Below, piece after piece: positions 15,366 through 64,000 of a DNA stretch of 64,000 bases (within the stretch, counting starts at the first letter, position 1; the number at the start of each line of letters is the position of its first letter). The notes beneath the pieces are model-generated. The model did no database searches. It had not been told where the DNA came from and was given only the letters and a program-made list of their open reading frames with translations. Both the position numbers and the translations under genes were made by a program. The stretch is from Salicibibacter cibi. GTDB lineage: Bacteria > Bacillota > Bacilli > Bacillales > Marinococcaceae. The stretch lies in assembly GCF_016495865.1 (NCBI RefSeq), contig NZ_CP054706.1, positions 2,666,001 through 2,730,000 on the forward strand, written 5' to 3'.

Positions 15366-15600
15366 CCTCGCTCAACCCTTTCTCATATTCTTCCATCCTA
15401 ACTATTTTCATGGGTAGGTAGACTCACCATGTTTACAATAATGCATATATGCGCTTTCGGCAAGCATTATTCGAACATTGTGTGACTTTTTTTATTTAAA
15501 ATTAATGCATTAAGTTTACATGAAACCCTTGTTGTTGTAAATCGTATTTTTTTCCGTTTCTAATTATTATTTGCCATCAAAGTCGTCTTTAAATTCGTAA

Positions 15601-15759
15601 ATTCGTAAGATAGAGTGGCGATTTGAAACGTTACGGTTGTTCTGGTTATTTTGGGGTTGATGTGTCGCCCTTTCTGTTTTATATTTTAATCTGATGTCGT
15701 TATCCTTCTAATTTTGCCAAAAAAAATGTATTGAAAGTTTTTAATTCGTAAGATATAGT
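15601..15759 (+). promoter_or_regulatory. Promoter of the peptide-binding gene with a duplicated 16-base element
   Basis: TTGAAA (15731-15736) and TATAGT (15754-15759) with a 17-base spacer sit about 38 bases before the start codon. The 16-mer ATTCGTAAGATATAGT that contains this -10 (15744-15759) recurs with one change at 15601-15616. The repeat may mark a regulator site or a second promoter. Rest of the 430-base divergent region is AT-rich with no gene. Confidence 0.5.
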
Positions 15760-38561: not shown

Positions 38562-38830
38562 CATAGCGCCCTTTCGGTCGGGTCGATTGCAGTTTCGGTC
38601 GCCATGGGAGCTTCATGGCGACCGAAAGATCGATCTACTCTTGATTTCGGGCTTCATGAACGTCCCATGGCGACTGAAAAGCCTTGTTTCATGCATTTTC
38701 GGGACTCATGACCTCTTCATGGCAACCGAAAGATCGATCCACTCTTGCTTTCAGGCTCCATGAACACCCCATGGCGACCGGAAAGCCCTGCTTCAATCGA
38801 ATTCGGTCGTCATGCCGCTTCCATGCTGAC
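38562..38830. repeat. Tandem array 1, 52 bp period, GGTCGCCATG hairpin family
   Basis: CATGGCGACCGAAA-like motifs begin at 38562 (weak), 38614, 38666, 38718, 38770 and 38822, always 52 bases apart; alternate units are more alike, giving a 104 bp super-period. The most regular unit has 14-base perfect arms (TTTCGGTCGCCATG at 38593-38606 and its complement at 38614-38627) around seven bases. 52 is not a multiple of three, and stops occur in all frames, so it is not coding. Confidence 0.85.
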
Positions 38831-38881
38831 CGTTTCATGCTTTTTCCTTAAATTCGCTCGCCACGCCCCCATCTAACCAAA

Positions 38882-38920
38882 CAAAAAAAGCACTGTCCCT
38901 TCACTCCGGGTTCAGTGCTC
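38882..38920 (-). terminator. Terminator of the 38-residue membrane peptide gene
   Basis: Minus-strand stem AGCACTG/CAGTGCT followed by seven T, just after the stop at 38927. Confidence 0.85.
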
Positions 38921-38926
38921 ACCTGA

Positions 38927-39043
38927 TTAATATTCTTTTCCTTGTTTGCGCCAAATTCGTCCAATGAAAACAGGAACAGCGATCGATCCGACAATGAGCA
39001 CGGCAGTAGCCACTTGCATGATCGTGTAAACCAATCCGTCCAT
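38927..39043 (-). CDS. Membrane micropeptide (38 aa)
   Basis: MDGLVYTIMQVATAVLIVGSIAVPVFIGRI… one membrane helix and a basic end (WRKQGKEY). AGGAGGG at 39048-39054 gives an ideal spacer to the ATG at 39043, and a strong terminator follows, so it is a complete transcription unit despite its size. Located between yjbA and trpS. Function unknown. Confidence 0.75.
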   Translation of the reverse strand: MDGLVYTIMQVATAVLIVGSIAVPVFIGRIWRKQGKEY

Positions 39044-39131
39044 GATGTCCCTCCTCACTCCATTTCTCGTCCCTATTATAATTGAGGAAAGAGAAAGTGT
39101 AAATGAAGGAATAGTTTGCGCCTACAGGCTA

Positions 39132-39881
39132 TTATTTATGCATTTCGCTTTCATGTTGCATATCCCATATTTTCTCAAAGAACGGCTGTCCCTTTGTCAT
39201 CGCTTCGCATAAATGATAATGATCTTCGCTCCAGCCAACGCTTACTTCATTATACAACCGTTGCAATGCTTCTTCCCCACTCATCATTTGAATCTCCATG
39301 TATTTTTCAGGGACCCACTCCGTGTACCAATAACGGATTTCCGCCTCTTGACCGGAGGTGTCCAATTGATCGATAATCATAAACAACAATTGTTTTAGTT
39401 GCCGTTCTTTACGTGTTAATCCTTGCATATATTTCGGATGCGGGGACAGGATATGATATTCCTTTTCGATCGGCTCCCCTTCTTCCCCACAAGCAGGTTC
39501 TTCGGACTGTTCGATCGCCTCGATCGTCAGTTTTTCCTGCCGGGGTGTCAGACGGCTTTTTCGGATCGGCGTTTCGTACCCAAGTGTATCCACGACCAAT
39601 GTGGCTGTGCCGGTCGTTGCAATAAAACAATAATCGAGCGGAAGCTTGGACATATTTTTGCGAAGCGCACTTTTTCGATATACAGCATCGAGCAATTGTC
39701 GAGGAACCGTCTCTAGGCTATTTTCCAGTTGTTCATATAATCGCTCAGTGACCTTGACTACCTCGGCGATATCAAGGACTTCTATTTTGTCTTCACTTCG
39801 CCATTCATGGAATGGACAAATATTGTACCCATTTTCTTCGCCTTCAAACCAATTGACCCATACATCACGAATTCGGGCCAT
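39132..39881 (-). CDS. yjbA: UPF0736 family protein (YjbA homologue)
   Basis: 249 residues. Nearly every conserved block of B. subtilis YjbA is present: DVWVNWFEGEENGYNIC, DTLGYETPIRKSRLTPRQE, HILSPHPKYMQGLTRKERQ, EIRYWYTEWVPE and KGQPFFEKIWDM. Soluble protein, unknown function, restricted to Bacillaceae and relatives. In B. subtilis it is also the neighbour of trpS. Confidence 0.93.
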   Translation of the reverse strand: MARIRDVWVNWFEGEENGYNICPFHEWRSEDKIEVLDIAEVVKVTERLYEQLENSLETVPRQLLDAVYRKSALRKNMSKLPLDYCFIATTGTATLVVDTLGYETPIRKSRLTPRQEKLTIEAIEQSEEPACGEEGEPIEKEYHILSPHPKYMQGLTRKERQLKQLLFMIIDQLDTSGQEAEIRYWYTEWVPEKYMEIQMMSGEEALQRLYNEVSVGWSEDHYHLCEAMTKGQPFFEKIWDMQHESEMHK

Positions 39882-39941
39882 TAGTAAGCCCCCTTCCTAT
39901 ACGAGAAATCGTACCTACAGTATAGTCGGAGTTAAGGGATT

Positions 39942-40187
39942 TTATTCCACGATATCCTTTTTGATTTGTTTTTTCGTTTTTCGGGGCATGCGAAGAAAAC
40001 TAAAGGCCGCCAGTAGCAACCCACCTGTGAAAAGATACAATTCAGGTTGCAAAATAATGAAATGCCAATACTCGTAAAAGCTATACCCGGATACGGTTAA
40101 ATTTAAATAGCCGATCAGACCAATCGCTCCGACTGCAGCAATAAAAACACCGATGGCAGCGATAGACACTCGAATAGCAATCGTCAT
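39942..40187 (-). CDS. Hypothetical membrane protein (about 81 aa)
   Basis: Two hydrophobic segments (VSIAAIGVFIAAVGAIGLIGYL and FIILQPELYLFTGGLLLAAFSFL) and a lysine-rich tail KTKKQIKKDIVE. I place the start at the ATG at 40187 directly behind AAGGGGGG; a longer frame to 40241 would add a hydrophilic leader. The short distance between the purine run and that ATG makes the exact start uncertain. Divergent from the nucleotidyltransferase gene. Not recognised. Confidence 0.6.
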   Translation of the reverse strand: MTIAIRVSIAAIGVFIAAVGAIGLIGYLNLTVSGYSFYEYWHFIILQPELYLFTGGLLLAAFSFLRMPRKTKKQIKKDIVE

Positions 40188-40276
40188 CTCCCCCCTTACC
40201 GGAAGTGGGAGTTTCCCCACTTTATCCAATGGTATGATCAAACTTTATGCGTATGACAAGCCGAGGTGTAAATAAT

Positions 40277-42808
40277 ATGAAAATCATCGCTTCCCATAAA
40301 AACACGGATTTCGACGCACTTGCTTCTCTCGTTGCAGCGAAAAAACTATATCCCGACGCGAACATTTTATTGCCGGCAAAAGTTAGCCCGAATGTGAAAA
40401 AGTATTTAGCCATTTACCGCGACCAGTTTCCTTATATCAACGAACAACAATTGCCTTCCTCCGACAAGATCGAAGCGCTGATTTTAGTCGATACATATGA
40501 TCCTGTCCGTGTGAGCAATCATTTTCAGGACAACAATCCCGCGAGCGTTATTGTCTATGACCACCATCCCGAAAGTTTCCATCTTCCCCACCCTGGAGAA
40601 ACAGCCCCGGTCGGGGCAACGATTACGATACTCCTCGAGCTTATTCAAGCAGAAGAAATCGTGCTCACCGATTGGGAACGGACGCTTTTCGCGCTTGGCT
40701 TATATACGGATACCGGCTCTTTCACCTACGAACATACGACAAGCCGTGACGTGCGCGCCCTTCTTTTTTTATTCAACCAAGGAATTGCCCTTGATGTTGT
40801 CAATCGTTTTTCCGACACTTCTTTTTCCGAGGAACAAAAAGCGCTGCTTATGCAACTTCTGCAGCAAGGGAAAGCGCACGACGTTGACGGCGTTTCGATC
40901 ATGATTGGAACGATTTCCGCCGATGCTTTCATTGACCGGCTAAACCTCATCGTTGACAAGTGGCTTGATTTGGCAGAAGCAGATGCATGTATCGCCGTCT
41001 CGGAAATGAAAAATACGATTTTCGTTACGGCAAGGAGCAGACACTCACGTGTGGATGTATCAAAAGCTTTGGCTGCCGTTGGCGGCGGCGGACACCCCCA
41101 AGCTGCCGCCGCAACAATCAAAGACGGTAAACAAGCGGAAATAGCCGCTAACATTCAGACCCACCTTTCCACCGCAGTTTCGCCTGCTCTCGTAGCAAAA
41201 CAAATGATGAGCCACCCGGTAAAAACAGTGAGCCCCGACACCCCTATTGAAGAAGTCGGAGAGGAGATCCGCCGTTACGGTCATTCCGGATTTCCGGTTC
41301 AAGAAAATGGTCAACTAGTCGGCATGATCTCCCGCCGTGATGTGGACAAAGCGGTCCATCATGGGCTTGGGCACGCTCCGGTAAAAGGGCATATGAACGA
41401 ACGGGTCATTACGTGTGAAGCGAACGCGACCTCCGAAGACGTTCAACAACAGATGATCACGCACGACATCGGGCGTTTACCGATTCTCGCAAACAATGAA
41501 CTGATCGGCATCATTTCACGTTCCGATCTTTTGCAATTGCTGCACGATGAGCACTATGAAAAAAAACAAAAGCAAACACGCAACATGATGGACAACATGG
41601 CACGTGCTCTGCCTGCCAATCATTTCGATTTGCTGCAAACGATCGGCCACATTGCCGACCAAAAAGGGGTCCAAGCCTATCTTATCGGCGGGATCGTCAG
41701 AGATCTGTTGCTCGAACGCGAAAATGAAGATATGGACATCGTTGTCGAAGGGGATGGCATCGCCTTTGCCGAAACGGCTGCCGATCAATTGGAAGGAGAA
41801 CTGCATACACACAATGACTTTAAGACCGCAAAAATAATCCTCAACGACGGGCAGCACATTGATATTGCCTCTGCCCGGGCGGAATATTACGATGCGCCTG
41901 CCGCTCTGCCGAACGTCAGATTTTCGAACTTGCGGGAAGACCTTTATCGCAGGGACTTTACTTTTAACGCACTGGCGATTCACCTTAATGAAGATGGATT
42001 TGGAACGCTTATCGACCCTTTCGGCGGAGAAAAAGATTTACAAGATGGGATCATACGCGTCCTTCACAATCTCAGTTTCATCGAAGATCCGACGAGAATC
42101 TTACGCGCCATCCGTTTTGAATTAAAATTTTCCTACACCTTTGCCGCAGATACGCAAAGATTCGCCGAGTTGGCTACAGCTGCCATTTCCCACTTATCCG
42201 CCGAACGTATCAAAGCCGAATTTCAGCGATTATTCGTGGAAGTGTCAGCGGCAAAGACCTTTAAACGATTGGAAGATATGAACCTATTGGGAGCCTTCAT
42301 TCCATTTGCCGGTTGGTCCAGGGAAGTCGGGCAGATGATCTCAACGTTAGAATACGAATCCTTGCCGGAAAACCTGTTCACTTTTTCACGACTTCTTCCG
42401 TTATTTGCATTCGACGGAGCGTTACAACACCTGACCCGTTTTGCGTTGACGAAAACCGAAAAACAACTGTTGAATGCCTTCGGTCGCTTGCAAGCTCTTG
42501 ATGAAACAGCCTTCACTTCTCTCGGCACCCTTCATGAAAACGTCCATGAAGCCGAAGAGACTAGTCTGGTTCTTTTTGAAATGTATACGGAAGTTTTAAA
42601 TAAAAACAAAAGCATGATGATCAAACGATACCGCGATAAACGGCGCCGCATGCCTGCTTTGCTTTCAGGTGAAGATTTGCGAAAGCTTCCCATGGCTCCC
42701 GGGCCGCGATACAAGCACTATTTGCTAAAAGCGGAAAGTCTATGGATGAATGATACATTAAAAAACCGGGAGGATGCGTTGCAATGGCTGAAGGCCCCCG
42801 ACAAATAG
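40277..42808 (+). CDS. DHH-CBS-CBS-tRNA nucleotidyltransferase fusion
   Basis: About 843 residues. Order: DHH/DHHA1 phosphoesterase domain (ASHKNTDFDALAS, LVDTYD, DHHPES, and GGGGHPQAAA at ~residue 280), two CBS domains (about 310-435: MMSHPVKTVSPDTPIEEV …, then DLLQLLHDE), then a class II polymerase domain with IGGIVRDLLLERENEDMDIVVEG (G-G/D-x-D catalytic site) and RRDFTFNALAI, and a C-terminal tRNA-binding part. The same architecture occurs in the A-adding tRNA enzyme of Aquifex; so CCA-, A-adding or poly(A) activity plus oligonucleotide cleavage. ATG at 40277 follows GAGGTG; a longer frame from 40247 lacks a site. Confidence 0.85.
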   Translation: MKIIASHKNTDFDALASLVAAKKLYPDANILLPAKVSPNVKKYLAIYRDQFPYINEQQLPSSDKIEALILVDTYDPVRVSNHFQDNNPASVIVYDHHPESFHLPHPGETAPVGATITILLELIQAEEIVLTDWERTLFALGLYTDTGSFTYEHTTSRDVRALLFLFNQGIALDVVNRFSDTSFSEEQKALLMQLLQQGKAHDVDGVSIMIGTISADAFIDRLNLIVDKWLDLAEADACIAVSEMKNTIFVTARSRHSRVDVSKALAAVGGGGHPQAAAATIKDGKQAEIAANIQTHLSTAVSPALVAKQMMSHPVKTVSPDTPIEEVGEEIRRYGHSGFPVQENGQLVGMISRRDVDKAVHHGLGHAPVKGHMNERVITCEANATSEDVQQQMITHDIGRLPILANNELIGIISRSDLLQLLHDEHYEKKQKQTRNMMDNMARALPANHFDLLQTIGHIADQKGVQAYLIGGIVRDLLLERENEDMDIVVEGDGIAFAETAADQLEGELHTHNDFKTAKIILNDGQHIDIASARAEYYDAPAALPNVRFSNLREDLYRRDFTFNALAIHLNEDGFGTLIDPFGGEKDLQDGIIRVLHNLSFIEDPTRILRAIRFELKFSYTFAADTQRFAELATAAISHLSAERIKAEFQRLFVEVSAAKTFKRLEDMNLLGAFIPFAGWSREVGQMISTLEYESLPENLFTFSRLLPLFAFDGALQHLTRFALTKTEKQLLNAFGRLQALDETAFTSLGTLHENVHEAEETSLVLFEMYTEVLNKNKSMMIKRYRDKRRRMPALLSGEDLRKLPMAPGPRYKHYLLKAESLWMNDTLKNREDALQWLKAPDK

Positions 42809-42885
42809 GGGGCTTGCTGCCCCTTCATTCCTCCATTATGATAGATGTAAGCGATACCATTCTTACTCTTGAAGGAGGATTACAC

Positions 42886-43809
42886 ATGCCCCTTGATCCG
42901 CAAGCAAAAACAGTTTTGGATTTTTTGTCTCAAGGTCCGTCATTGGAAACATTGCCGCTCGAGGAGGCGCGGGCTTCGTTTGAAAAACTGAGCGCCACCG
43001 CGCAACCCCCATTTGTTGAAAACGTCGAAGATCGGAGCATCCCCGGACCGGATGGCGACATTCCGATTCGCGTTTACAACCCCTTTAAAGAAGGGACGCA
43101 CCCTGCACTGATTTTCTATCACGGGGGTGGATGGGTGGTAGGGAGCATTGAATCCCATGATTCTTTATGCCGGTCATTGGCCAACCTCGCGCAATGCATC
43201 GTCATTTCCGTAGACTACCGACTGGCGCCTGAACATAAGTTTCCGAAAGCAGTGGAAGATGCATACGCTGCCGCTGAATGGGTTGCCAATAACGGAGCAT
43301 CCCTTCATGTGGATACAGATCACCTTGCAGTAGGTGGCGACAGTGCGGGCGGAAATTTAGCGACGGTAACCGCAATGATTACCAAAGAAAAAGGGGAGCC
43401 TGCCCTTTCCTACCAGGTGCTTTTTTACCCTTCCACGGGCGCGGGAATTCCAACTGAATCACAACGGGAAAATGGCGAGGGATATTTTTTAACGACAGAT
43501 ATGATGACCTGGTTCGCAGGACAATATTTTGAGACATTTGATGAATTGCAAAACCCTTACGCCGTTCCTTTAAAAGCGGAAGATTTAAGCGGTTTGCCGC
43601 CTGCGCTCGTGATCACGGCCGAATTCGACCCGTTGCGGGATGAAGGAAAAGCCTATGCCGATAAACTGGAAAAGGCGGGCGTGGACGTTGTGCATACGTG
43701 CTACGGCGGGATGATTCACGGCTTCGTTAGCATGGTAGCATTCATATCCAAAGGAACCGAAGCGATCGAGCAAGCTGCCGAGGCGTTGAAGGGTGCGTTT
43801 CGGAGATGA
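42886..43809 (+). CDS. Alpha/beta hydrolase, hormone-sensitive-lipase-like carboxylesterase
   Basis: 307 residues. Oxyanion motif HGGGWV at about residue 82, nucleophile GDSAGGN (~155), acid in EFDPLRDEG and His in GMIHGF near the end: the HSL (family IV) esterase pattern. Cytoplasmic, no signal peptide. GAAGGAGG (42871-42878) is seven bases before the ATG at 42886; the frame is open from 42784 but that part overlaps the preceding gene. The 3' end merges with a 52 bp-period repeat array. Confidence 0.9.
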   Translation: MPLDPQAKTVLDFLSQGPSLETLPLEEARASFEKLSATAQPPFVENVEDRSIPGPDGDIPIRVYNPFKEGTHPALIFYHGGGWVVGSIESHDSLCRSLANLAQCIVISVDYRLAPEHKFPKAVEDAYAAAEWVANNGASLHVDTDHLAVGGDSAGGNLATVTAMITKEKGEPALSYQVLFYPSTGAGIPTESQRENGEGYFLTTDMMTWFAGQYFETFDELQNPYAVPLKAEDLSGLPPALVITAEFDPLRDEGKAYADKLEKAGVDVVHTCYGGMIHGFVSMVAFISKGTEAIEQAAEALKGAFRR

Positions 43810-43965
43810 TCTGAAACGAAGGATATGGTTCACGTTGTCGCACCTCTATTTCGGAGCAGCTCGACCTCCGTCTGAGGGATTACTTTGCTTCTCTTGTTCC
43901 TCTCGGAGAAGTTCGTTCTCTGTCCGAGAGGATCGCGCTGCCACCCTTCGATCGGTAGCGACAAC
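43800..43965. repeat. Tandem array 2, ~52 bp period, TCGGAG family
   Basis: TCGGAG occurs at 43800, 43851 and 43903 with related context, i.e. 51 and 52 bases apart; a weaker TCGGTAG follows at 43952. The 43903 unit has perfect nine-base arms CCTCTCGGA/TCCGAGAGG around 15 bases. Overlaps the last codons of the esterase gene. Confidence 0.65.
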
Positions 43966-44313
43966 ACTTAAGATAAACAATTTCCGAGATAGAGTGCTAG
44001 TGTAGGGTAGTTGAATTATCCGATCACACCCAATAGTGAGGCAACAAATAAGATGGCATGAGCGCTAATCAAGTGAAATCCGGCGCTATCTATGTATGGA
44101 GAAGACATTATTTTACGCTTTGCCTATTTTTTTGTCCTCACCCACGCCCGGTGAGGACTAATATCCTTCTTTTTTTGATTGATCATTTATTTCAACCATT
44201 CGGCACTACTGTACTGTTTCAAAAGTTCCTTCACGGCGTTATACGGACAAAATCCTTGTTAATAGATGATTATTCCCACTCTGGCGGGACGATTTTTGCG
44301 TAATACTGAACCA
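43966..44313. other. Gene-free stretch with one solitary hairpin
   Basis: No credible gene. The only structure is a perfect hairpin GTCCTCACC/GGTGAGGAC (44134-44158), whose arm shares GTCCTCA/TGAGGAC with the arrays at 44844 and 50371. It looks like a single, untandemed member of that family. Confidence 0.55.
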
Positions 44314-44352
44314 AAAAATAACCGCCCTTACATCTGCAACGATTAGGGCAGT
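44314..44352 (-). terminator. Terminator downstream of the osmC relic
   Basis: Minus-strand stem AACTGCCCT/AGGGCGGTT followed by ATTTTTT. Confidence 0.75.
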
Positions 44353-44366
44353 TATTGCACTCCGTG

Positions 44367-44605
44367 CTATTTTGTCGTTTTTTCAACTACTACTTGAGTG
44401 GAGGCTAGACTAACCTGATTGGCAATGGTGTCTCCAACTGGGCAATGAGCCTCAATAAATTCCTTGTATGCAGGTATTTTTTCTTCAGAGGCATTTGTTT
44501 CAATATGGAAGGTATATCGAATATCAGAAAAACCCGGCCGCACATCCGACTTGCAAAAAACCCATCCAGATCAATATCACCCTCTAGTTCAACCCAACCA
44601 GGAGC
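44367..44605 (-). pseudogene. OsmC-family peroxiredoxin remnant (C-terminal third)
   Basis: Translating the minus strand gives the end of an OsmC/Ohr-like protein: WVELEGDIDLDGF, then after a one-base shift in a T run CKSDVRPGFSDIRYTFHIE, and EFIEAHCPVGDTIANQVSL before the stop at 44369-44367. The second active-site Cys region (HCPVGDTI) is retained, but the N-terminal two thirds, including the first Cys, are missing; they are replaced by the 53 bp repeat array that begins at 44607. Adding one T restores the frame inside the relic. Still followed by its terminator. OsmC proteins reduce organic hydroperoxides; this one cannot be functional. Confidence 0.8.
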
Positions 44606-44606
44606 C

Positions 44607-44765
44607 GGTTAGAGACCCTTTAAACGGTTTACCCCCCGCTGTTCGGGTGCCAATTGTATGATTAGTGACCCTTCGAACGTGTTTTTAACCTCTGTTCGGG
44701 TGCTAATGACACGGTTAGTGACCCATCAACCTGGTTTTCACTGCTGTTCGGGGTCCTAACTAGTT
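44607..44765. repeat. Tandem array 3, 53 bp period, GGTTAGTGACCC family
   Basis: Three units starting at 44607, 44660 and 44713 (GGTTAGAGACCC, GATTAGTGACCC, GGTTAGTGACCC), each containing CTGTTCGGGTGCTAA-like sequence. GGGTGCTAA and TTAGTGACCC pair across unit borders around about eight bases. Units are 60-75% alike, so the array is old. Directly abuts the broken end of the osmC relic. Confidence 0.75.
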
Positions 44766-44843
44766 ATTGTACTCCTCCATTCGAGCGTTACATGTGGAAA
44801 ACCACCGGTGCGTATGCCTAGTGGTCTGGAGCAGGGTCGGAAA

Positions 44844-44930
44844 AGTCCTCAGAAACGAGATCTGCGGACTCCGAGGTTGACTCAGGAGCCAGATGAGTCC
44901 TCAGGCTCGGGTTTTGGGGATTGATAATGG
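44844..44930. repeat. Tandem array 4, two units, 52 bp period, AGTCCTCA family
   Basis: AGTCCTCAG at 44844 and again at 44896, exactly 52 bases apart. The motif and spacing are those of the large array at 50371-50938, but intervening sequence has diverged. Confidence 0.6.
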
Positions 44931-45015
44931 GTGCCGAACGGCAAATTCATCCGCTAAAATAACAAAAAAAGGAAAATTCACCATTGTATACATCTTTAAT
45001 GGGGTGTATCAAAGC

Positions 45016-45471
45016 GCCGCGGTTGGATAAACTTTTGCCCACTATATCAATGAACCGGACGTTCGGCTTATCGGCGCAGAACCGGCAGAAGCACCTACAA
45101 TGTCACAAGGTTCTCCCGCAATCATTCATGGTTATAAGTGTTTAACGCTCGTAGACGAAAACGGGGAGCCGAAGCCGACGTATTCGATCGCTGCCGGTCT
45201 CGATTACCCGGGAGTCGGACCTGAACACAGCTATTTAAAAGTAAGCGAGCGAGCCGAGTATGTGACGGTCAGCGGCGATGAAGCACTGGAAGCATTTCAA
45301 GAACTGGCTCGCGAGGAAGGGATCATTCCGGCTTTGGAAAGTGCACACGCTTTAGCAGAGACAATGAAACTTGCCAAAATCTTATCGCCGGATGATAGCA
45401 TCATCGTCAACCTCTCCGGAAGAGGAGACAAAGATGTGGATCAGGTTTTTCAACTTTTAAAAGCTAAATAA
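45016..45471 (+). pseudogene. trpB: Tryptophan synthase beta-chain remnant (C-terminal third)
   Basis: The frame gives the end of Trp[37 protein letters not shown] segment, a Glu/Ala helix region and [14 protein letters not shown] near the C-terminus, the GRGDKD block that ends TrpB proteins. About 150 residues of ~400 remain. An in-frame TAA (45028-45030) lies just inside the homologous part and everything upstream, including the pyridoxal-phosphate lysine, is missing. Neighbouring trp genes are absent. An ATG at 45100 opens 123 codons but has no ribosome binding site. Relic of gene loss or of incoming DNA. Confidence 0.85.
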
Positions 45472-45476
45472 TCGAA

Positions 45477-45509
45477 AAAGCAGGGGCAAATCCCTGCTTT
45501 TTTATTTTT
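45477..45509. terminator. Terminator after the trpB relic, possibly bidirectional
   Basis: Stem AGCAGGG/CCCTGCT, six-base loop, T run on plus and A run on minus, between the trpB relic and the convergent ABC permease gene. Confidence 0.8.
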
Positions 45510-45520
45510 CACAGTACACC

Positions 45521-46261
45521 CTAATTTCTTGATTCACGCAAAAACTTCCGGTAACCAACAAATGCTAAAACAAACCCAACACCTGTGTAACCAAGTAATA
45601 TGAGTAAGGCTATCCCTACGTTTTCCCCATCGGGTTGTCCGGGAAGCGTTGAAAGCAACGCTTGGTGCGCCCAATATTGGGGGGAGAACGTACCGATCGT
45701 TTGGATCGTTTCGGGTAACGTTTCAAACGGCATCCATAGCCCACCAAGGATGGCTCCGGCAAAAGCAATCACTTGTGTGAGTGCAAGCCCCGTGTTTTCC
45801 GTTTTGGAGAACATTGCAATAGCCACACCCCAGGATGTCACCATCATAGCCACAAAACAGGCAATGAGCAGATAGAAAAAGGGTTGATCAATGCTCATGC
45901 CATAAACAACGATTCCCAAAATCGCGAGTACTATGATTTGTCCGACAACGATAGCACCAAAAGGCAACCATTTGCCGATAAAATAACCGCCCGGCGTGAG
46001 TGGCGTGCTAGCCAGACGTGCCACAAATCCATTTTCCCGATCTTTGACAAAACTGATGACCATGGAAATGATAATAAAAACAGCAAAAAAGACGCTAAAT
46101 CCCGTGATAATTTGATTGGCAACCGCTGTCTGATCCGGTGCGTCCGCAGCAAAGATGGCCATAAATCCCATAATAAATACGATCGGCAAAGCCAGGGTCC
46201 AGAACAGTAAAGCTTTGTCTTGCAGTTGTTTTCTCGTTTCTATATTTGCTACAGCCCACAT
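45521..46261 (-). CDS. ABC-2 type transporter permease
   Basis: About 246 residues, six membrane segments. N-terminal cytosolic helix NIETRKQLQDKALLFW then segments; FVKDRENGFVARLASTPL is the ABC-2 cytosolic loop and YWAHQALLSTLPG a C-terminal extracellular loop. I take ATG 46261 (MWAVAN) as start, nine bases after GGAGG; the frame is open to 46285 inside the ATPase gene. Last gene of the LytTR-DUF3021-ATPase-permease operon. Confidence 0.88.
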   Translation of the reverse strand: MWAVANIETRKQLQDKALLFWTLALPIVFIMGFMAIFAADAPDQTAVANQIITGFSVFFAVFIIISMVISFVKDRENGFVARLASTPLTPGGYFIGKWLPFGAIVVGQIIVLAILGIVVYGMSIDQPFFYLLIACFVAMMVTSWGVAIAMFSKTENTGLALTQVIAFAGAILGGLWMPFETLPETIQTIGTFSPQYWAHQALLSTLPGQPDGENVGIALLILLGYTGVGFVLAFVGYRKFLRESRN

Positions 46262-46274
46262 ATGTTCATACCTC

Positions 46275-47162
46275 CTATGCAGCATCCCGCAAAGCAGTGC
46301 CGGTTAATGTGAAAAATACATCTTCCAAACGTGGTTGCATCAATGATAATTGCGACGGCGTGATATTGTGTTCTTCGCAACGTCTCGCTAAATCACCGAG
46401 GAGTTGCATAGGGTTCGATGACGTGAAAAGCCACCCGCCATCTTTTTGCTGAATGACGTTCTCGGAATCTAGCCACGCTTGCGGAAGATCTCCTTTGATA
46501 AACACTGCCGGTTGTGCATAGCTGGCCAGTAAACCATCGATGCTCCCTTGTTCAACAATTTTTCCGCCATCCATAAACGCAACCTCATCGCAAAGCGCTT
46601 CAATCTCTTCCATATAATGGCTCGCATAAATAATCGTTTTTCCCTGCTGTTTTAACGTACGAATCAGTTGGAAAATATGGTGACGGGATTGGGGATCAAC
46701 GCCAACGGTCGGTTCATCCATAATGACAAGATCCGGTTCATGCATAAGTGCACATCCAATATTAAGACGGCGTTTCATTCCACCTGAAAATGTCTTCACT
46801 TTTGATTTGGCACGGTTGGTTAAGCCAATCTCATTAAATACGGTTTTCACCTGCCGAGCAAGTTTCTCGCCGGTTAATCCATGAATTTTTCCATAAAAAT
46901 GGAGGTTGGTGGTTGCTGATAACGTTTCTTCCACACAAATTTCCTGGGGAACATAGCCGAGAGGAGGCGAAGTCGAATCAGATACGTGAATCGATCCTTC
47001 ATAATCTTTAATTACCCCCGCCAGAATTTTAATTAAAGAGGACTTCCCTGCACCATTTGGACCGACGAGCCCGTAACACACGCCTGCCGGAATTGATAAG
47101 TCAATATTTTGCAATGCCTGAATGTCTTTATAACGTTTGTTTACATTTTGGATAGTAATCAT
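46275..47162 (-). CDS. ABC exporter ATP-binding protein in a LytTR operon
   Basis: About 295 residues: Walker A GPNGAGKSSL, signature TFSGGMKRRLNIGCAL, Walker B LVIMDEPTVGVDP, switch His in YASHYMEE. Start chosen at the ATG at 47162 (MITIQNVNKRY), six bases after GAGAGG. C-terminal ~80 residues are the DrrA-like extension. Paired with the following permease. Transported compound unknown; LytTR-linked ABC-2 exporters often handle bacteriocins or peptides. Confidence 0.9.
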   Translation of the reverse strand: MITIQNVNKRYKDIQALQNIDLSIPAGVCYGLVGPNGAGKSSLIKILAGVIKDYEGSIHVSDSTSPPLGYVPQEICVEETLSATTNLHFYGKIHGLTGEKLARQVKTVFNEIGLTNRAKSKVKTFSGGMKRRLNIGCALMHEPDLVIMDEPTVGVDPQSRHHIFQLIRTLKQQGKTIIYASHYMEEIEALCDEVAFMDGGKIVEQGSIDGLLASYAQPAVFIKGDLPQAWLDSENVIQQKDGGWLFTSSNPMQLLGDLARRCEEHNITPSQLSLMQPRLEDVFFTLTGTALRDAA

Positions 47163-47176
47163 ATTCATCCTCTCTT

Positions 47177-47581
47177 TCACTTTACCGAATCATTCATATC
47201 GGCTTCTATCTTTTTAAAATAAGCCCTAAAAGCAAACCAGAAGAACACATAGAGGGCGGTGAACATGCCAAAAGAAAGCACAATCGAGCGCAACGTAAAG
47301 GGAATCCACCCCGCCATAAAAATGGCGATGAGAAACCAAAGCATAATGGAAAGACCGAAATGGACGGCGACTTGTTTCAAAGGACTCCATTTCTCAATTT
47401 CAAAGAAGAATGAGGAAACGCCAAAATAAACCCCAAGTATCATGCTGCCCAACATATAGACCCATACTTGTGCAACGGGCACTTCAATATCCTGAACCGT
47501 GAGGATGGTCAAAGCAACAAAAGTAATCACGCAGGCAAAACCGAGACCGCCAAGACTTCTTTCTACCATTTCACGTAGCAT
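47177..47581 (-). CDS. DUF3021 membrane protein (LytTR partner)
   Basis: About 134 residues with four membrane helices in the DUF3021 pattern (GGLGFACVITFVALTIL; YMLGSMILGVYFGVSSFFF; hydrophobic pair; FTALYVFFWFAFRAYFKKI). The start is the ATG at 47581, eight bases after GGGGGG, overlapping the LytTR gene. In LytTR regulatory systems the small membrane protein restrains its cognate regulator; co-occurrence here suggests that role. Confidence 0.85.
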   Translation of the reverse strand: MLREMVERSLGGLGFACVITFVALTILTVQDIEVPVAQVWVYMLGSMILGVYFGVSSFFFEIEKWSPLKQVAVHFGLSIMLWFLIAIFMAGWIPFTLRSIVLSFGMFTALYVFFWFAFRAYFKKIEADMNDSVK

Positions 47582-48035
47582 TCGAACCACCCCCCATCAC
47601 CAATTTTTCCTTTAACGGTGCCACGTATTTTCGGGATACATACTCCTTGTTGCCTGAGTCGAAATGAATACACAAATTGCCGTTAAACGCCAATTCAAAA
47701 CGCTGAATATGATGAATGTTGCCGATTACCGATTTGGAAAAACGTGTAAAATCATAACCTTCAAGCAACGCTTCAACTTCATACAGTTTCATTTTCAATT
47801 CAATGTTCTGCTTCGTTGTCGTCGCGGCAAACACCTTCCTTTTTTCCGCATACACAAAGTCAATGTCATTCGGGTCGAGCACAATCGATTGCTCTTCACT
47901 AACACCGACAATGCGCCCGCTTGTTGTGTTATTCAATTGTCTGACAAGCGCCTCCAACTCGGGCGACCACTCCCTGGCCTGAATGATGACCGTCGTCTCC
48001 TCATGCTTGTCGCTAAGATCAATGTTCACATTCAC
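47571..48035 (-). CDS. LytTR-family DNA-binding regulator without receiver domain
   Basis: 154 residues. C-terminal LytTR domain: DIDFVYAEKRKVFA, KLYEVEALLEGYDFTRFSKSVIGNIHHIQRFE and YVSRKYVAPLKEKL. The N-terminal ~50 residues lack a response-regulator receiver, so it is not a two-component regulator but the LytTR-plus-membrane-inhibitor type. GTG start at 48035, eight bases after GAGGGG. Heads a four-gene operon; autoregulation likely, although I found no clear paired LytTR site in the 130-base leader. Confidence 0.9.
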   Translation of the reverse strand: MNVNIDLSDKHEETTVIIQAREWSPELEALVRQLNNTTSGRIVGVSEEQSIVLDPNDIDFVYAEKRKVFAATTTKQNIELKMKLYEVEALLEGYDFTRFSKSVIGNIHHIQRFELAFNGNLCIHFDSGNKEYVSRKYVAPLKEKLVMGGGSNAT

Positions 48036-48166
48036 TTGTTATACCCCTCTTCAGATATAGTAAAGGATCAACCGTAACGTTGTGTTAAACATAGCATAAC
48101 CCGTTGCCAGAGGTGTTCAAGATGACTTGATCGGTGTACGAAATGTTTTTTTTAAATATGACAATA

Positions 48167-48769
48167 TTACCCGTTCCGAGCTATCCTGAGCAATCTTCTG
48201 CCCGTTAACACAATTACAACACTTGTTATCCACAATATTAACATAGAACCAAACCCAACCAATGACCACCATGTATTGACCTGGTGCTGTCCCAGACTGA
48301 CCTCTAGTGGAACAAAGAGCACTGTCCCAATGGCAAGCAAACAAAGAAGCGTTCCCGTAATATAGTAAGTCTTCACTTGAAAAAGATAGGCCAGAGGAAG
48401 GAAGTGAATCCCTACAATAATAGCCATAATCGGGAAAAACCAATCGAACTGTCCAATCGCATTGCACACGAAGGCAGCAATAATAATCAACACAAATTCT
48501 GCAGCAATAATAATATTAAACCACTTGTCGACATTCTTTGAGCTATGAACATTTGTATTAGACAAGTTTCGGGAACCCTTAATCAATGAAATTCCCGAGC
48601 AAAATAAAACAGTACCGATCAATATCGCCAGAATCAGTATCCAGATGGAAGCCGATTCCTGCAAACCGCCAATCCCGACATTCGCCCACACTGTTCCAAA
48701 AAAGGCCATAAACATAACCCCGGAAGCCGTCCCGCGCACATCTGCTTTAGAGACAACCGTTCGCGACAC
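48167..48769 (-). CDS. Six-TM hypothetical membrane protein
   Basis: About 200 residues with six hydrophobic helices (for example SIWILILAILIGTVLFCSG, FNIIIAAEFVLIIIAAF, MLILWITSVVIVLTG). No motif recognised; resembles uncharacterised proteins in drug-response loci. AAAGGGGG is directly followed by an ATG at 48775 but GTG at 48769 has the better six-base spacer. Divergent from the MerR-TipAS gene; the promoter region between them carries a MerR-type site, so both may be one regulatory unit. Confidence 0.7.
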   Translation of the reverse strand: MSRTVVSKADVRGTASGVMFMAFFGTVWANVGIGGLQESASIWILILAILIGTVLFCSGISLIKGSRNLSNTNVHSSKNVDKWFNIIIAAEFVLIIIAAFVCNAIGQFDWFFPIMAIIVGIHFLPLAYLFQVKTYYITGTLLCLLAIGTVLFVPLEVSLGQHQVNTWWSLVGFGSMLILWITSVVIVLTGRRLLRIARNG

Positions 48770-48827
48770 ACACATCCCCCTTTCCTGCTATGCCACCAAA
48801 TAATACCTTTAAAAAAAATTATTTTCC

Positions 48828-48860
48828 CCTTGAGGTTAACGTTACGTAAAGGTTTATAAT
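48828..48860 (+). promoter_or_regulatory. MerR-type promoter with 19 bp spacer and dyad
   Basis: TTGAGG (48830-48835) and TATAAT (48855-48860) are 19 bases apart, the lengthened spacing that MerR proteins correct by twisting DNA. An imperfect dyad centred at 48840 (CCTT … AAGG outer arms, 8 of 12 pairs) fills the spacer. 25 bases upstream of the MerR-TipAS start: autoregulation. Confidence 0.75.
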
Positions 48861-48885
48861 AATTATAGTCAAGGGATGGATAATC

Positions 48886-49644
48886 ATGAAATACACGGTA
48901 AATCAACTCGCGCACTTGTCAGGTGTAAGCGGGCGAACATTACGTTACTATGATCAAATCGGGCTGCTTAAACCCGCCAGAATCAATTCATCCGGATATC
49001 GGATTTACGGGCATAAAGAGGTAGATCTTCTTCAGCAAATCCTATTTTACCGTGAATTGGATGTCAGTCTTTCGGAAATCATGAAAATCATTAATCAGCC
49101 AACATTTGATCAAACAAAGGCTCTAAAATATCATTATAACAATCTGAAGGAAAAGCGTACCCGCCTTGACAAAATAATGGCGACTGTTGAAAGGACAATT
49201 GCCTATAAGGAAAGAGGAGCATTGATGCTTGATAAAGAAAAATTCGAAGGATTCAAGGAAAAATTAATCCAAGACAACGAGCAAAAGCACGGGAAAGAAG
49301 TCCGGGGAAAACATGGCGATGCTGCGGTAGATGCAAGCAATGAAAAGCTTAGGGAAATGTCTCGAGAGGACTACTATGCTTTCACTACGTTGGAAGAAGA
49401 AATCCATTCATTACTTCCAAAGGCATATGCAACCGGGGATCCCTCATCTGACCTAGCACAAGAACTTGCTGCCAAGCATAAAGAATGGTTGATGTATTCA
49501 TGGGGAAGTTACTCCAAAGAAGCACATGCCGGATTAGCAGAAATATATGTTTCCGATGAACGTTTTACGGCTTACTATGACAAGAGCGTCAAAGGCGGAA
49601 CCGCATTTTTGCGAGATGCCATTTTGGTTTATGTAAGATACTGA
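48886..49644 (+). CDS. MerR-family regulator with TipAS antibiotic-recognition domain
   Basis: 252 residues. N-terminal MerR head (YTVNQLAHLSGVSGRTLRYYDQIGLLKPAR … GYRIYGHKEV), coiled-coil dimer helix to about residue 115, then a TipAS-like helical domain (YYAFTTLEEEIHSLLPKA, HKEWLMYSWGSYSKEAHAGLAEIYVSDERFTAYYDKSVKGGTAFL). TipA-class proteins bind thiopeptides or other ligands and switch on their own promoter and resistance genes; the 19 bp-spacer promoter upstream agrees. Length matches full-length TipA-type proteins (~250). Confidence 0.93.
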   Translation: MKYTVNQLAHLSGVSGRTLRYYDQIGLLKPARINSSGYRIYGHKEVDLLQQILFYRELDVSLSEIMKIINQPTFDQTKALKYHYNNLKEKRTRLDKIMATVERTIAYKERGALMLDKEKFEGFKEKLIQDNEQKHGKEVRGKHGDAAVDASNEKLREMSREDYYAFTTLEEEIHSLLPKAYATGDPSSDLAQELAAKHKEWLMYSWGSYSKEAHAGLAEIYVSDERFTAYYDKSVKGGTAFLRDAILVYVRY

Positions 49645-49815
49645 TGTTAATAATTAATAAAATCGCTGGTATGAAATTAAATCAATATTCATTCAAATCG
49701 TTCCGTTACCGTTAAAGGAAAAAGCGAAATCATTATTCCTGTTCGGAAAAGATGCAGAGAGAACTGCTGTTGCAGCCAAAATAAACAGTATAATCTGAGT
49801 AAAAGGAGATATCCA

Positions 49816-50090
49816 GTGACCATTATTGCTATGAATGGTAGCCCACGATGAAGAAAATCAACTCATATCCTAAAAGTTAATTACATTTTTACAAACATGC
49901 CTGATAAAAGCACCAATGTATATTCCAACTTCTGATAAAACGTTTCCTTTGCTTCTTGTGGGAGCGCATAAAAGTTCCCCTTCTTTTCAACATTATAACT
50001 CATTTTTATTACGTTGAAGCAGAGTACAAAACCTGCGAATATATTAAAGCAGAAAAACTAGGGCAAGGTGGCTTAATTACCCGATCATGA
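49816..50090 (+). pseudogene. NADPH-dependent FMN-reductase/flavodoxin-like gene remnant
   Basis: Start and end of a gene remain. At 49816 a GTG behind AAAAGGAG reads MTIIAMNGSPR, the typical N-terminus of flavodoxin-fold NAD(P)H oxidoreductases, but is stopped by TGA at 49849 (then RKSTHILKV in frame). At 50010-50090 another open stretch ends with EYIKAEKLGQGGLITRS and a stop, a plausible C-terminus of the same gene. The ~130 bases between cannot hold the missing ~130 residues, so the centre is deleted. The stop codon region merges into a 52 bp repeat array. Confidence 0.65.
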
Positions 50091-50200
50091 GGACAGCGAC
50101 CGAACGAGCGATTGGTTTTCGTGTTCGGTCGCCATAACCGTTTCATGGTGACCGGGGAGCCCTGCTTCGCGAGAAGACATTGGGTCATTGACGATAGCCT
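50086..50200. repeat. Tandem array 5, 52 bp period, GGTCGCCAT family
   Basis: GACCG blocks at 50098 and 50150 are 52 bases apart. CGGTCGCCAT and ATGGTGACCG form a hairpin around nine bases (50127-50154), and GGAGCCCTGCTTCG recalls array 1 (AAGCCCTGCTTCA at 38783), 11.5 kb away. Same sequence family as array 1, fewer and more diverged units. Confidence 0.65.
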
Positions 50201-50370
50201 TTGATACCTTCACTCGGGCTGTGGCAGTTTAATCCCATCGATCACTAACCCCAGTTTGAAGTCCTAATACGGTCTTCCGGTCGTCGGTGTGATCGCTTAT
50301 TTCCGACAGGCTGCACTAGTAGTCTATATCAGAAGTTCTGAAACTCCTATTCAAATATCTCCCGATTCTT

Positions 50371-50938
50371 TGAGGACTGATCGGGGTCAAACATTGCGTT
50401 TTGAGTCCTCAGTTGTCCGGTCTGAGGACTGATCGGGGTTAAAAACTGCATTTTGAGTCCTCAGTTGCCCGATCTGAAGACTGATCGGGGGGTTAAAAAC
50501 TGCATTTTGAGTCCTCAGTTGCCCGATCTGAGGACTGATCGGGGTCAAACATTGCGTTTTGAGTCCTCAGTTGTCCGGTCTGAGGACTAATCGGGGTTAA
50601 AAACTGCATTTTGAGTCCTCAGTTGCCCGATCTGAGGACTGATCGGGGTTAAAAACTGCATTTTGAGTCCTCAGTTGCCCGGTCTGAAGACTGATCGGGG
50701 TCAAACATTGCGTTTTGAGTCCTCAGTTGCCCGGTCTGAAGACTGATCGGGGTTAAAAACTGCATTTTGAGTCCTCAGTTGCCCGATCTGAGGACTGATC
50801 GGGGTCAAAAACTGCATTTTGAGTCCTCAGTTGCCCGGTCTGAAGACTGATCGGGGTTAAAAACTGCATTTTGAGTCCTCAGTTGTCCGGTCTGAGGACT
50901 GATCGGGGTTAAAAACTGCATTTTGAGTCCTCAGTTGC
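50371..50938. repeat. Tandem array 6, eleven units of 52 bp, AGTCCTCA hairpin family
   Basis: Units start at 50371, 50423, 50475, 50529, 50581, 50633, 50685, 50737, 50789, 50841 and 50893; only the third is longer (54, two extra G). Each has TGAGGACT (or TGAAGACT), GATCGGGG, an A/T-rich middle and TTTTGAGTCCTCAGTTG(C/T)CCG(A/G)TC. AGTCCTCA pairs with the next TGAGGACT around 11 bases, and CCCGATC in that loop can alternatively pair with GATCGGG. Units are >90% identical, so the array is young or homogenised. Not CRISPR: no unique spacers. No gene within 300 bases upstream. Confidence 0.95.
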
Positions 50939-51047
50939 TGTGGTTGATCATCGTTTGGCCGGATTTTTGTGCAGGAAAGCATTTTTGAAACGTTATACTA
51001 GGACGAGTATAAAACCCGCCCAAGTTCTTTTTTTTCGTCCTTTATTT

Positions 51048-63625: not shown

Positions 63626-64000
63626 TTATAACTTGCTACAAAGCCGTTTCTTAACCTTTTTTGGCTCCTGATTGATCTTAGCAATAAAAGATTGGACGGC
63701 TTCGCGAATCTGTTCAACAGTCTCATAGAATACATTGTAGATCACTGATTTTTTCAGCCAGCCCCACAGACCTTCGATTAAATTCAATTGTGGGCTGTAT
63801 GGCGGGAGAAACATGAGTTGTAGTTGATGGGAATGTTCCTCTAAAAATGGCTGAATAAGCTTCGCATGATGAATCTTGGAATTGTCTAGAATCATGACGA
63901 TTTTTTGATTGGGATACTTCTTGAGCACACTTTTTAAAAATGACAAAAACACTTTTGCGTCATAACGTTCTTCTTCGACACAAAACGTTTCTCCAGTTGC
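63626..64000 (-). mobile_element. IS630-family transposase, C-terminal half (cut by window end)
   Basis: DDE_3-type transposase: residues ATGETFCVEEERYDAK at the window edge, then VMILDNSKIHHAK with the second catalytic Asp, and LPPYSPQLNLIEGLWGWLKK with the final Glu, the hallmark of IS630. The frame is open to base 64000, so the N-terminal part with the first Asp lies outside. Ends with QEPKKVKKRLCSKL at 63626. Confidence 0.93.

What the first reader, a model, noticed from the sequence alone, without database searches (positions are those of the whole stretch)
38562..50938. Six non-coding arrays of four sequence families share one 52-53 bp period
Seen directly: arrays at 38562-38830 (steps 52), 43800-43965 (51, 52), 44607-44765 (53, 53), 44844-44930 (52), 50086-50200 (52) and 50371-50938 (ten steps, nine of 52). 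The unit sequences belong to different families (GGTCGCCATG, TCGGAG, GGTTAGTGACCC, AGTCCTCA), yet the period is constant and most units contain one inverted repeat with a 7-15 base loop. Chance tandem duplication would give unrelated periods. 52 bp is close to five turns of B-DNA, so each hairpin or dyad would face the same side; it is also not a multiple of three, arguing against coding. Inference: a common generating process (an element, polymerase or recombinase that measures 52 nt) or a common binding partner.
Basis: partly seen in the sequence, partly recalled or inferred. Interest (0 to 1): 0.88.

Follow-up and report, generated by a model that had tools for sequence, protein, structure and literature searches.

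The report
Fixed-length 52-bp intergenic DNA arrays
Several related bacterial genomes carry many short tandem DNA arrays between genes whose repeat length stays close to 52 base pairs although the sequences differ, which suggests that something in the cell measures or requires that length.

Summary
All six arrays have the stated steps, but only three stand on their own statistically; the weak ones (43800, 44844, 50086) are supported by homologues. A scan for any period from 20 to 200 found that 51 of 77 non-coding arrays in samples of four same-genus genomes have period 51-53 or about double (48 of 73 without the window); they fall into 17 BLAST clusters. A second genus has 12 of 12 at 52 or a multiple; a genome of another family has two such arrays. 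For the commonest dyad family, 51 of 59 neighbouring units lie exactly 52 bp apart, yet those units differ at 33% of bases. The 'hairpins' are better read as duplex-DNA dyads: arms do not clearly covary within families. Two window arrays sit inside TA-flanked MITEs with an empty site in a sister species. Closest known kinds: BOX, STAR and BIME repeats. I favour selection for five-turn spacing of protein-bound dyads; no binding protein is identified.

The parts
38588..38832 (+). F2 array (GGTCGCCATG dyads), five dyads 52 bp apart, starting 40 bp after the stop of a Trp/Tyr-tRNA synthetase gene (PF00579; called trpS here)
   Evidence: F2 sites at the same place in the three sister species, in G002 interrupted by an intron-like insert (by eye)
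43799..43965 (+). F4 array (TCGGAG...CTCCG), about three units, steps 51 and 52
   Evidence: about 16-17 units of 52 at the orthologous place in G003
44607..44765 (+). F3 array (GGTTAGTGACCC), three units, steps 53 and 53
   Evidence: five other matches in the genome
44844..44930 (+). F1-type short array, two anchors 52 bp apart, flank shared with L007 and L054
50061..50316 (+). type B MITE carrying an F2 array; right end matches one end of a DDE_3 (IS630-type) insertion sequence (40/55 aligned columns)
50319..50998 (+). type A MITE carrying the F1 array; left end matches the right end of a 1715-bp DDE_3 (IS630-type) insertion sequence (46/59 aligned columns)
50371..50938 (+). F1 array (TGAGGACT...AGTCCTCA), 10.9 units of 52 bp
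50059..50060 (.). TA at the left insertion edge (within CTAG; uninterrupted in G003)
50317..50318 (.). TA between the two adjacent elements
50999..51000 (.). TA at the right insertion edge

Best explanation
These are intergenic, satellite-like arrays built from a 52-bp module: in the families studied most closely, a dyad of two roughly 10-12-bp half-sites around a fixed 7-9-bp centre, plus a fast-changing linker. Arrays grow and shrink by whole units, most simply by unequal exchange (inferred from copy-number differences and repeated blocks of units), and some are spread by IS630-type transposition inside MITEs (indicated by TA flanks, an empty site and one shared end each). The length is held by selection at the level of duplex DNA: successive dyads five helical turns apart present their half-sites on one face to a cooperatively binding protein. 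The length constraint is supported here; the DNA-level reading is supported by independent variation of the two arms; the protein and the phasing are inferred.
For: Period: 51 of 77 non-coding arrays (open frame <150 aa) in 1,264 kb of four same-genus genomes at 51-53 or about double (48 of 73 without the window), in 17 clusters; 12 of 12 in G009, another genus, at 52, 104 or 156; in G194, another family, 2 of 5, at 52 and 53 (one of its four stretches was chosen because it held the profile's hit). Spacing measured with a profile that does not use spacing: 51 of 59 neighbours exactly 52, 56 of 59 at 51-53; with a second profile 57 of 93 and 89 of 93. Units exactly 52 apart differ at 25.5% (core) and 43.1% (linker) of positions; with the indel rate of nearby intergenic DNA the neutral chance of no net length change is about 0.14, or 0.29 with short gaps only. 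Dyad, not stem: paired cells 0.762 vs shuffled 0.752 (F2, 117 units), 0.736 vs 0.744 (F1, 116), 0.540 vs 0.540 (F4, 43), 0.609 vs 0.625 (G009b, 86), 0.737 vs 0.721 (G009a, 39); commonest centre length in 95/117, 106/116, 38/43, 63/86 and 36/39. Orientation to genes even (18 arrays scored). Few arrays in divergent regions: 17 convergent vs 3 divergent in total lengths of 49.4 and 47.1 kb.
Against: No binding protein found. Only 25 of 51 arrays have a dyad above all 40 column shuffles, and 30 of 51 are reached by at most two; for the window's F3 array all 40 shuffles reach it. So a dyad is not shown for every family. The F4 arms as I defined them pair poorly (0.54), a weak test. G009a is slightly above its shuffles (0.737 vs 0.721, sd 0.0066, largest 0.744), and between the F2 and G009a clades 7 of 11 dyad pairs have changes on both sides, with 80.6% of cells paired against 67.4% shuffled, which a structured RNA or ssDNA would also give. 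Arrays fold better than mononucleotide shuffles (31 of 51 with z below -2). If helical phase were all that mattered, 41-42 and 62-63 bp arrays should be common; one 42-bp array was seen. 26 of 77 non-coding arrays have other periods. The indel control rests on 26 events, and units of one array are not independent.
Confidence: 0.4

Rival explanations
1. Common descent alone: all families descend from one ancestral 52-bp array (BOX/STAR-like repeat) and keep the period only because unequal exchange copies whole units; no selection on length.
For: F2 and the G009a family align without gaps across genera; G194 of another family has a similar core; blocks of units are repeated, as unit-step amplification would give (by eye).
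Against: Linkers of units exactly 52 apart differ at 43% and the spacing is exactly 52 in 51 of 59 pairs, where local intergenic DNA would be expected to gain about 2.3 indels per unit (small control); 17 clusters without detectable similarity.
Confidence: 0.3
2. A length-measuring generator: an enzyme copies or inserts 52-nt units (rolling-circle, reverse transcription, or a recombinase acting on 11-7-11 sites, an architecture that recalls tyrosine-recombinase core sites; recalled, not tested).
For: New families would be born with the same length; the fixed centre with flanking inverted arms resembles recombinase core sites.
Against: No enzyme identified; this genome has only two partial Y1 transposase matches; G001 and G002 have no intact PF13358 match; repeated blocks of units suggest ordinary unequal exchange.
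Confidence: 0.12
3. RNA-level hairpins in 3' untranslated regions (REP- or terminator-like mRNA stabilisers).
For: Intergenic and commoner in convergent than divergent regions; hairpin potential; symmetrical change between clades.
Against: No clear within-family covariation, even orientation to genes, and no reason for a fixed spacing.
Confidence: 0.12

Closest known systems
BOX elements of Streptococcus pneumoniae (boxA-boxB(n)-boxC), PMC3049150 (passages seen)
   Same: Ends around a variable number of tandem internal modules, reported TIRs and target duplications, length variation by module, clustering and insertion into one another; the F1 element fits this plan (10.9, 3.9, 1.9 and 0.8 units by match length in L001, L002, L004 and L006).
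   Different: Here many sequence families share one module length, some arrays have no MITE ends that I could see, and the module reads as a DNA dyad without clear within-family covariation.
STAR elements of Staphylococcus, PMC3532100 (passages seen)
   Same: Intergenic direct repeats with a conserved motif and locus-specific spacers (40-44 bp at one locus), giving tandem repeats of about 50 nt whose copy number varies.
   Different: STAR motif not found in the window (0 matches with up to 2 mismatches); here one period is shared by many motif families.
REP/BIME with RAYT transposases, PMC2817692 (passages seen)
   Same: Palindromic, intergenic, many per genome, several families per genome.
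   Different: Only partial Y1 transposase matches in this genome; the paper reports complementary changes keeping REP palindromes, not clearly seen within families here; units are head-to-tail at one period.
IS630-associated MITEs such as RUP, PMC3049150 (passages seen)
   Same: The paper gives trans-mobilisation of RUP by IS630-Spn1 as hypothesised; here TA flanks at CTAG and one end shared with a resident DDE_3 element. The IS630 preference for TA/CTAG is recalled.
   Different: Carry internal 52-bp arrays.
Eukaryotic satellite DNA of nucleosomal unit length, PMC8122249 (start of abstract in a search listing)
   Same: Unit length conserved while sequence changes (analogy, recalled).
   Different: Bacterial, short, dispersed.

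Membership tests
BOX-type modular repeat | conserved ends flanking a variable number of internal tandem modules | tested here: met
   F1 element only: flanks shared by L001, L002, L004 and L006 with 10.9, 3.9, 1.9 and 0.8 units by match length
BOX-type modular repeat | sequence homology to boxA/B/C | not tested
   BOX sequences were not fetched; an Rfam search of the window at gathering thresholds gave 0 matches
STAR element | 14-bp motif T(G/A/T)TGTTG(G/T)GGCCC(C/A) | tested here: not met
   0 matches in the window with up to 2 mismatches
REP/BIME-RAYT | resident intact Y1 (RAYT-type) transposase | tested here: not met
   G000: two partial PF01797 matches; of the sister species, full-length matches occur in G001 (one without stops), G002 (one) and G003 (many)
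IS630-type MITE (the two window elements) | TA target duplication with an empty site | tested here: met
   window 50059-51000 against G003 L160
IS630-type MITE (the two window elements) | both ends match the ends of a resident IS | tested here: inconclusive
   one end of each exceeds its shuffled maximum (67 vs 34; 47 vs 30); the opposite ends do not (22 vs 28; 25 vs 26 and 22 vs 25)
CRISPR array | near-identical repeats with unrelated spacers | tested here: not met
   by eye: repeats are imperfect and linkers are near-identical or gradually diverged in most arrays read, more different in some (L017, L026)

The most novel reading that the evidence does not exclude
A bacterial satellite-DNA system: a genome-wide set of sequence-diverse arrays whose monomer length, not sequence, is conserved across genera and families because an unknown protein complex assembles on DNA in 52-bp (five-turn) steps, comparable in principle to nucleosome-length satellites.
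Probability: 0.25. Interest if true: 0.88.

Novelty: new variant of a known kind. Interest (0 to 1): 0.72.

Why it matters
Intergenic tandem repeats such as BOX and STAR have, as far as I know, no agreed function. Here one length is held across many sequence families and in three genera of two bacterial families, which turns the vague question 'what are they for' into a direct one: what recognises 52 bp. It gives a natural series of arrays (same spacing, different half-sites) for DNA-affinity capture and spacing mutants.

Tried and rejected
RNA hairpin under selection: set aside as main reading because arms do not clearly covary within families, though between-clade changes are symmetrical. 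RAYT origin: rejected for this genome. Rfam family: none at gathering threshold in the window. Coding repeats: rejected for most 52-bp arrays because the period is not a multiple of 3, 48 of 49 arrays with neighbours on both sides did not overlap a called ORF, but ORFs with over 30% of their length inside an array had been dropped first, and the ORF caller is crude. Mobile element as the sole cause: rejected. Phages and plasmids: no match for window 50061-50998, the only stretch searched. The search for related loci in genome contigs returned one irrelevant locus, L153. My scan is ungapped and cannot see arrays with frequent indels. One search used a hand-copied, incomplete part of the listing (45 of 45 neighbours at exactly 52; 61 of 64 pairs near multiples); one search repeats the test on all 173 rows and is the one to rely on. 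One search placed some site centres wrongly (40 of 52 exact); from it I use only the control and the neutral estimate. In one search at most 150 candidates per genome were scored and not all matches listed, so its counts are lower bounds; one search used stricter filters and an E-value of 1e-5.
Full report
Observation. The six arrays are at the stated places with the stated steps. TRF and an ungapped self-shift scan find three of them unaided; the other three do not beat chance alone but have homologues in the same genome or in a sister species.

Genome-wide test. The window is 64 kb of a 3.81-Mb genome. I scanned the window and evenly spaced 20-kb stretches, 1,264 kb in four same-genus genomes, for any period from 20 to 200. 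Shuffled copies of the G000 and G003 material gave one array (period 138). Of 77 arrays without a 150-aa open frame, 51 had period 51-53 or about double: G000 10 of 15 (7 of 11 without the window), G003 23 of 36, G001 11 of 14, G002 7 of 12. The other 26 include tRNA clusters (by eye), 21-bp and 138-143-bp repeats, and one 42-bp array. In 400 kb of four genomes outside the genus the count is 0 of 6. The 51 arrays fall into 17 BLAST clusters. The F1 element itself was found in 3 of 3 other same-genus genomes and 0 of 57 more distant ones.

Beyond the genus. A further 600 kb from eleven family genomes showed that G009, of another genus, has 12 arrays without a 150-aa open frame, all with period 52, 104 or 156; its first stretch was taken blind, nine more because it was positive. 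The other ten genomes (400 kb) have 5 such arrays, none at 51-53. One G009 family aligns without gaps over 53 columns with the window's F2 family. A sequence-only profile of both matched 5 of 29 family genomes, 2 of 12 genera; the other genome of G009's genus, G017, had none. In the order it matched 2 of 299 genomes at 1e-5 with stricter filters: this genome and G194, of another family. There the match lies in an array of about 12 units at 52 bp, and one of three arbitrarily chosen stretches holds a 53-bp array with a similar core. The distribution is patchy, so horizontal spread and loss are both possible.

Rigidity of the length. With the profile, which knows nothing of spacing, 51 of 59 neighbouring sites lie exactly 52 bp apart and 56 of 59 within 51-53; 61 of all 66 pairs up to 330 bp apart lie within one base of a multiple of 52 (from all 173 rows). 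Units exactly 52 apart differ at 33.3% of positions, 25.5% in the 29-bp core and 43.1% in the linker. Six intergenic comparisons near the arrays gave 26 indel events for 223 substitutions; at the divergence used that predicts about 2.3 events per unit and a chance of about 0.14 (0.29 with short gaps only) of no net change. The control is small, but the length looks constrained beyond inheritance.

Dyad rather than hairpin. If the inverted repeat were a selected stem, changes should be compensated. Within families they are not, or hardly: F2 0.762 paired against 0.752 shuffled (117 units; shuffled maximum 0.767), F1 0.736 against 0.744 (116), F4 0.540 against 0.540 (43; arms defined loosely), G009b 0.609 against 0.625 (86), G009a 0.737 against 0.721, sd 0.0066 (39). 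The centre is mostly 7 bp (F2, G009a, G009b) or 9 bp (F1, F4). Between the F2 and G009a clades, however, 7 of 11 pairs have changes on both sides, as expected both for a stem and for a symmetric protein site whose specificity shifted. Dyads are not demonstrable for all arrays: 25 of 51 exceed all 40 column shuffles. F2 orientation to genes is even among 18 arrays scored: tandem 4 same and 4 opposite, convergent 4 and 4, divergent 2.

Context. Of 49 arrays with called neighbours, 29 lie in tandem, 17 in convergent and 3 in divergent intergenic regions, while these regions total 134.5, 49.4 and 47.1 kb. Downstream of the trpS-like gene F2 sites are present in all four species, strongly diverged in G001. 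The F4 array after the esterase gene has about 3 units here and about 16-17 in G003, with repeated blocks of four units by eye; G002 has F2 sites at that place and none was seen in G001.

Mobility. Two adjacent elements at 50061-50316 and 50319-50998 are flanked by TA within CTAG; G003 has the uninterrupted site. The left end of the F1 element matches the right end of a 1715-bp element with a DDE_3 transposase in this genome (46 of 59 aligned columns, score 67 against a shuffled maximum of 34), and the right end of the F2 element matches one end of a second DDE_3 element (40 of 55, 47 against 30); the opposite ends are not significant. I call them IS630-type from DDE_3 plus TA target (recalled association). 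They can disperse some arrays but do not explain the period: G001 and G002 have no intact PF13358 match and have 11 and 7 arrays near 52 or double in 200 kb each.

Reading. BOX (PMC3049150) and STAR (PMC3532100) are the nearest kinds: modular or motif-plus-spacer intergenic repeats whose copy number varies (passages seen). What appears new is the strict, shared length across many families and across genera. None of the titles and abstract starts listed in my searches (open-access PMC papers only) describes this. I commit to selection for five-turn spacing of protein-bound dyads (0.4), with common descent without length selection as the main rival (0.3). The protein is unknown.

Taxonomy. From recall, four single-contig species would fit the genus Salicibibacter, which has four named species; this was not tested.

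Noticed in passing
window 44250-45470: Compared with G003, about 1.2 kb is missing here: an OsmC-like gene (my reading of the translation) and the first 240 residues of a trpB-like gene are cut, and the F3 and F1 arrays (44600-44960) sit at the junction; residues 241-391 of the trpB-like protein remain.
   Followed up: partly
L161:600-2610: In G002 a group II intron-like insert (by eye, no family search) interrupts the F2 array downstream of the trpS-like gene.
   Followed up: no
L107:12269-12323, L109:9601-9697, L110:16389-16462, L115:2615-2688; L096:11794-11863: A second recurrent array class with period 21 (core like TTTATCAGCC), once 42, about two helical turns; coding status unclear.
   Followed up: no
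window 15570-15759; L107:2374-2556: A repeat pair 142-143 bp apart occurs in both G000 and G003 with similar sequence.
   Followed up: no
window 63707-64000: A DDE_3 transposase match on the minus strand runs off the window's end.
   Followed up: partly
L068:8289-9037: A repeat with a 51-bp period inside a 574-aa open frame, a reminder that near-52 periods can also be coding.
   Followed up: no
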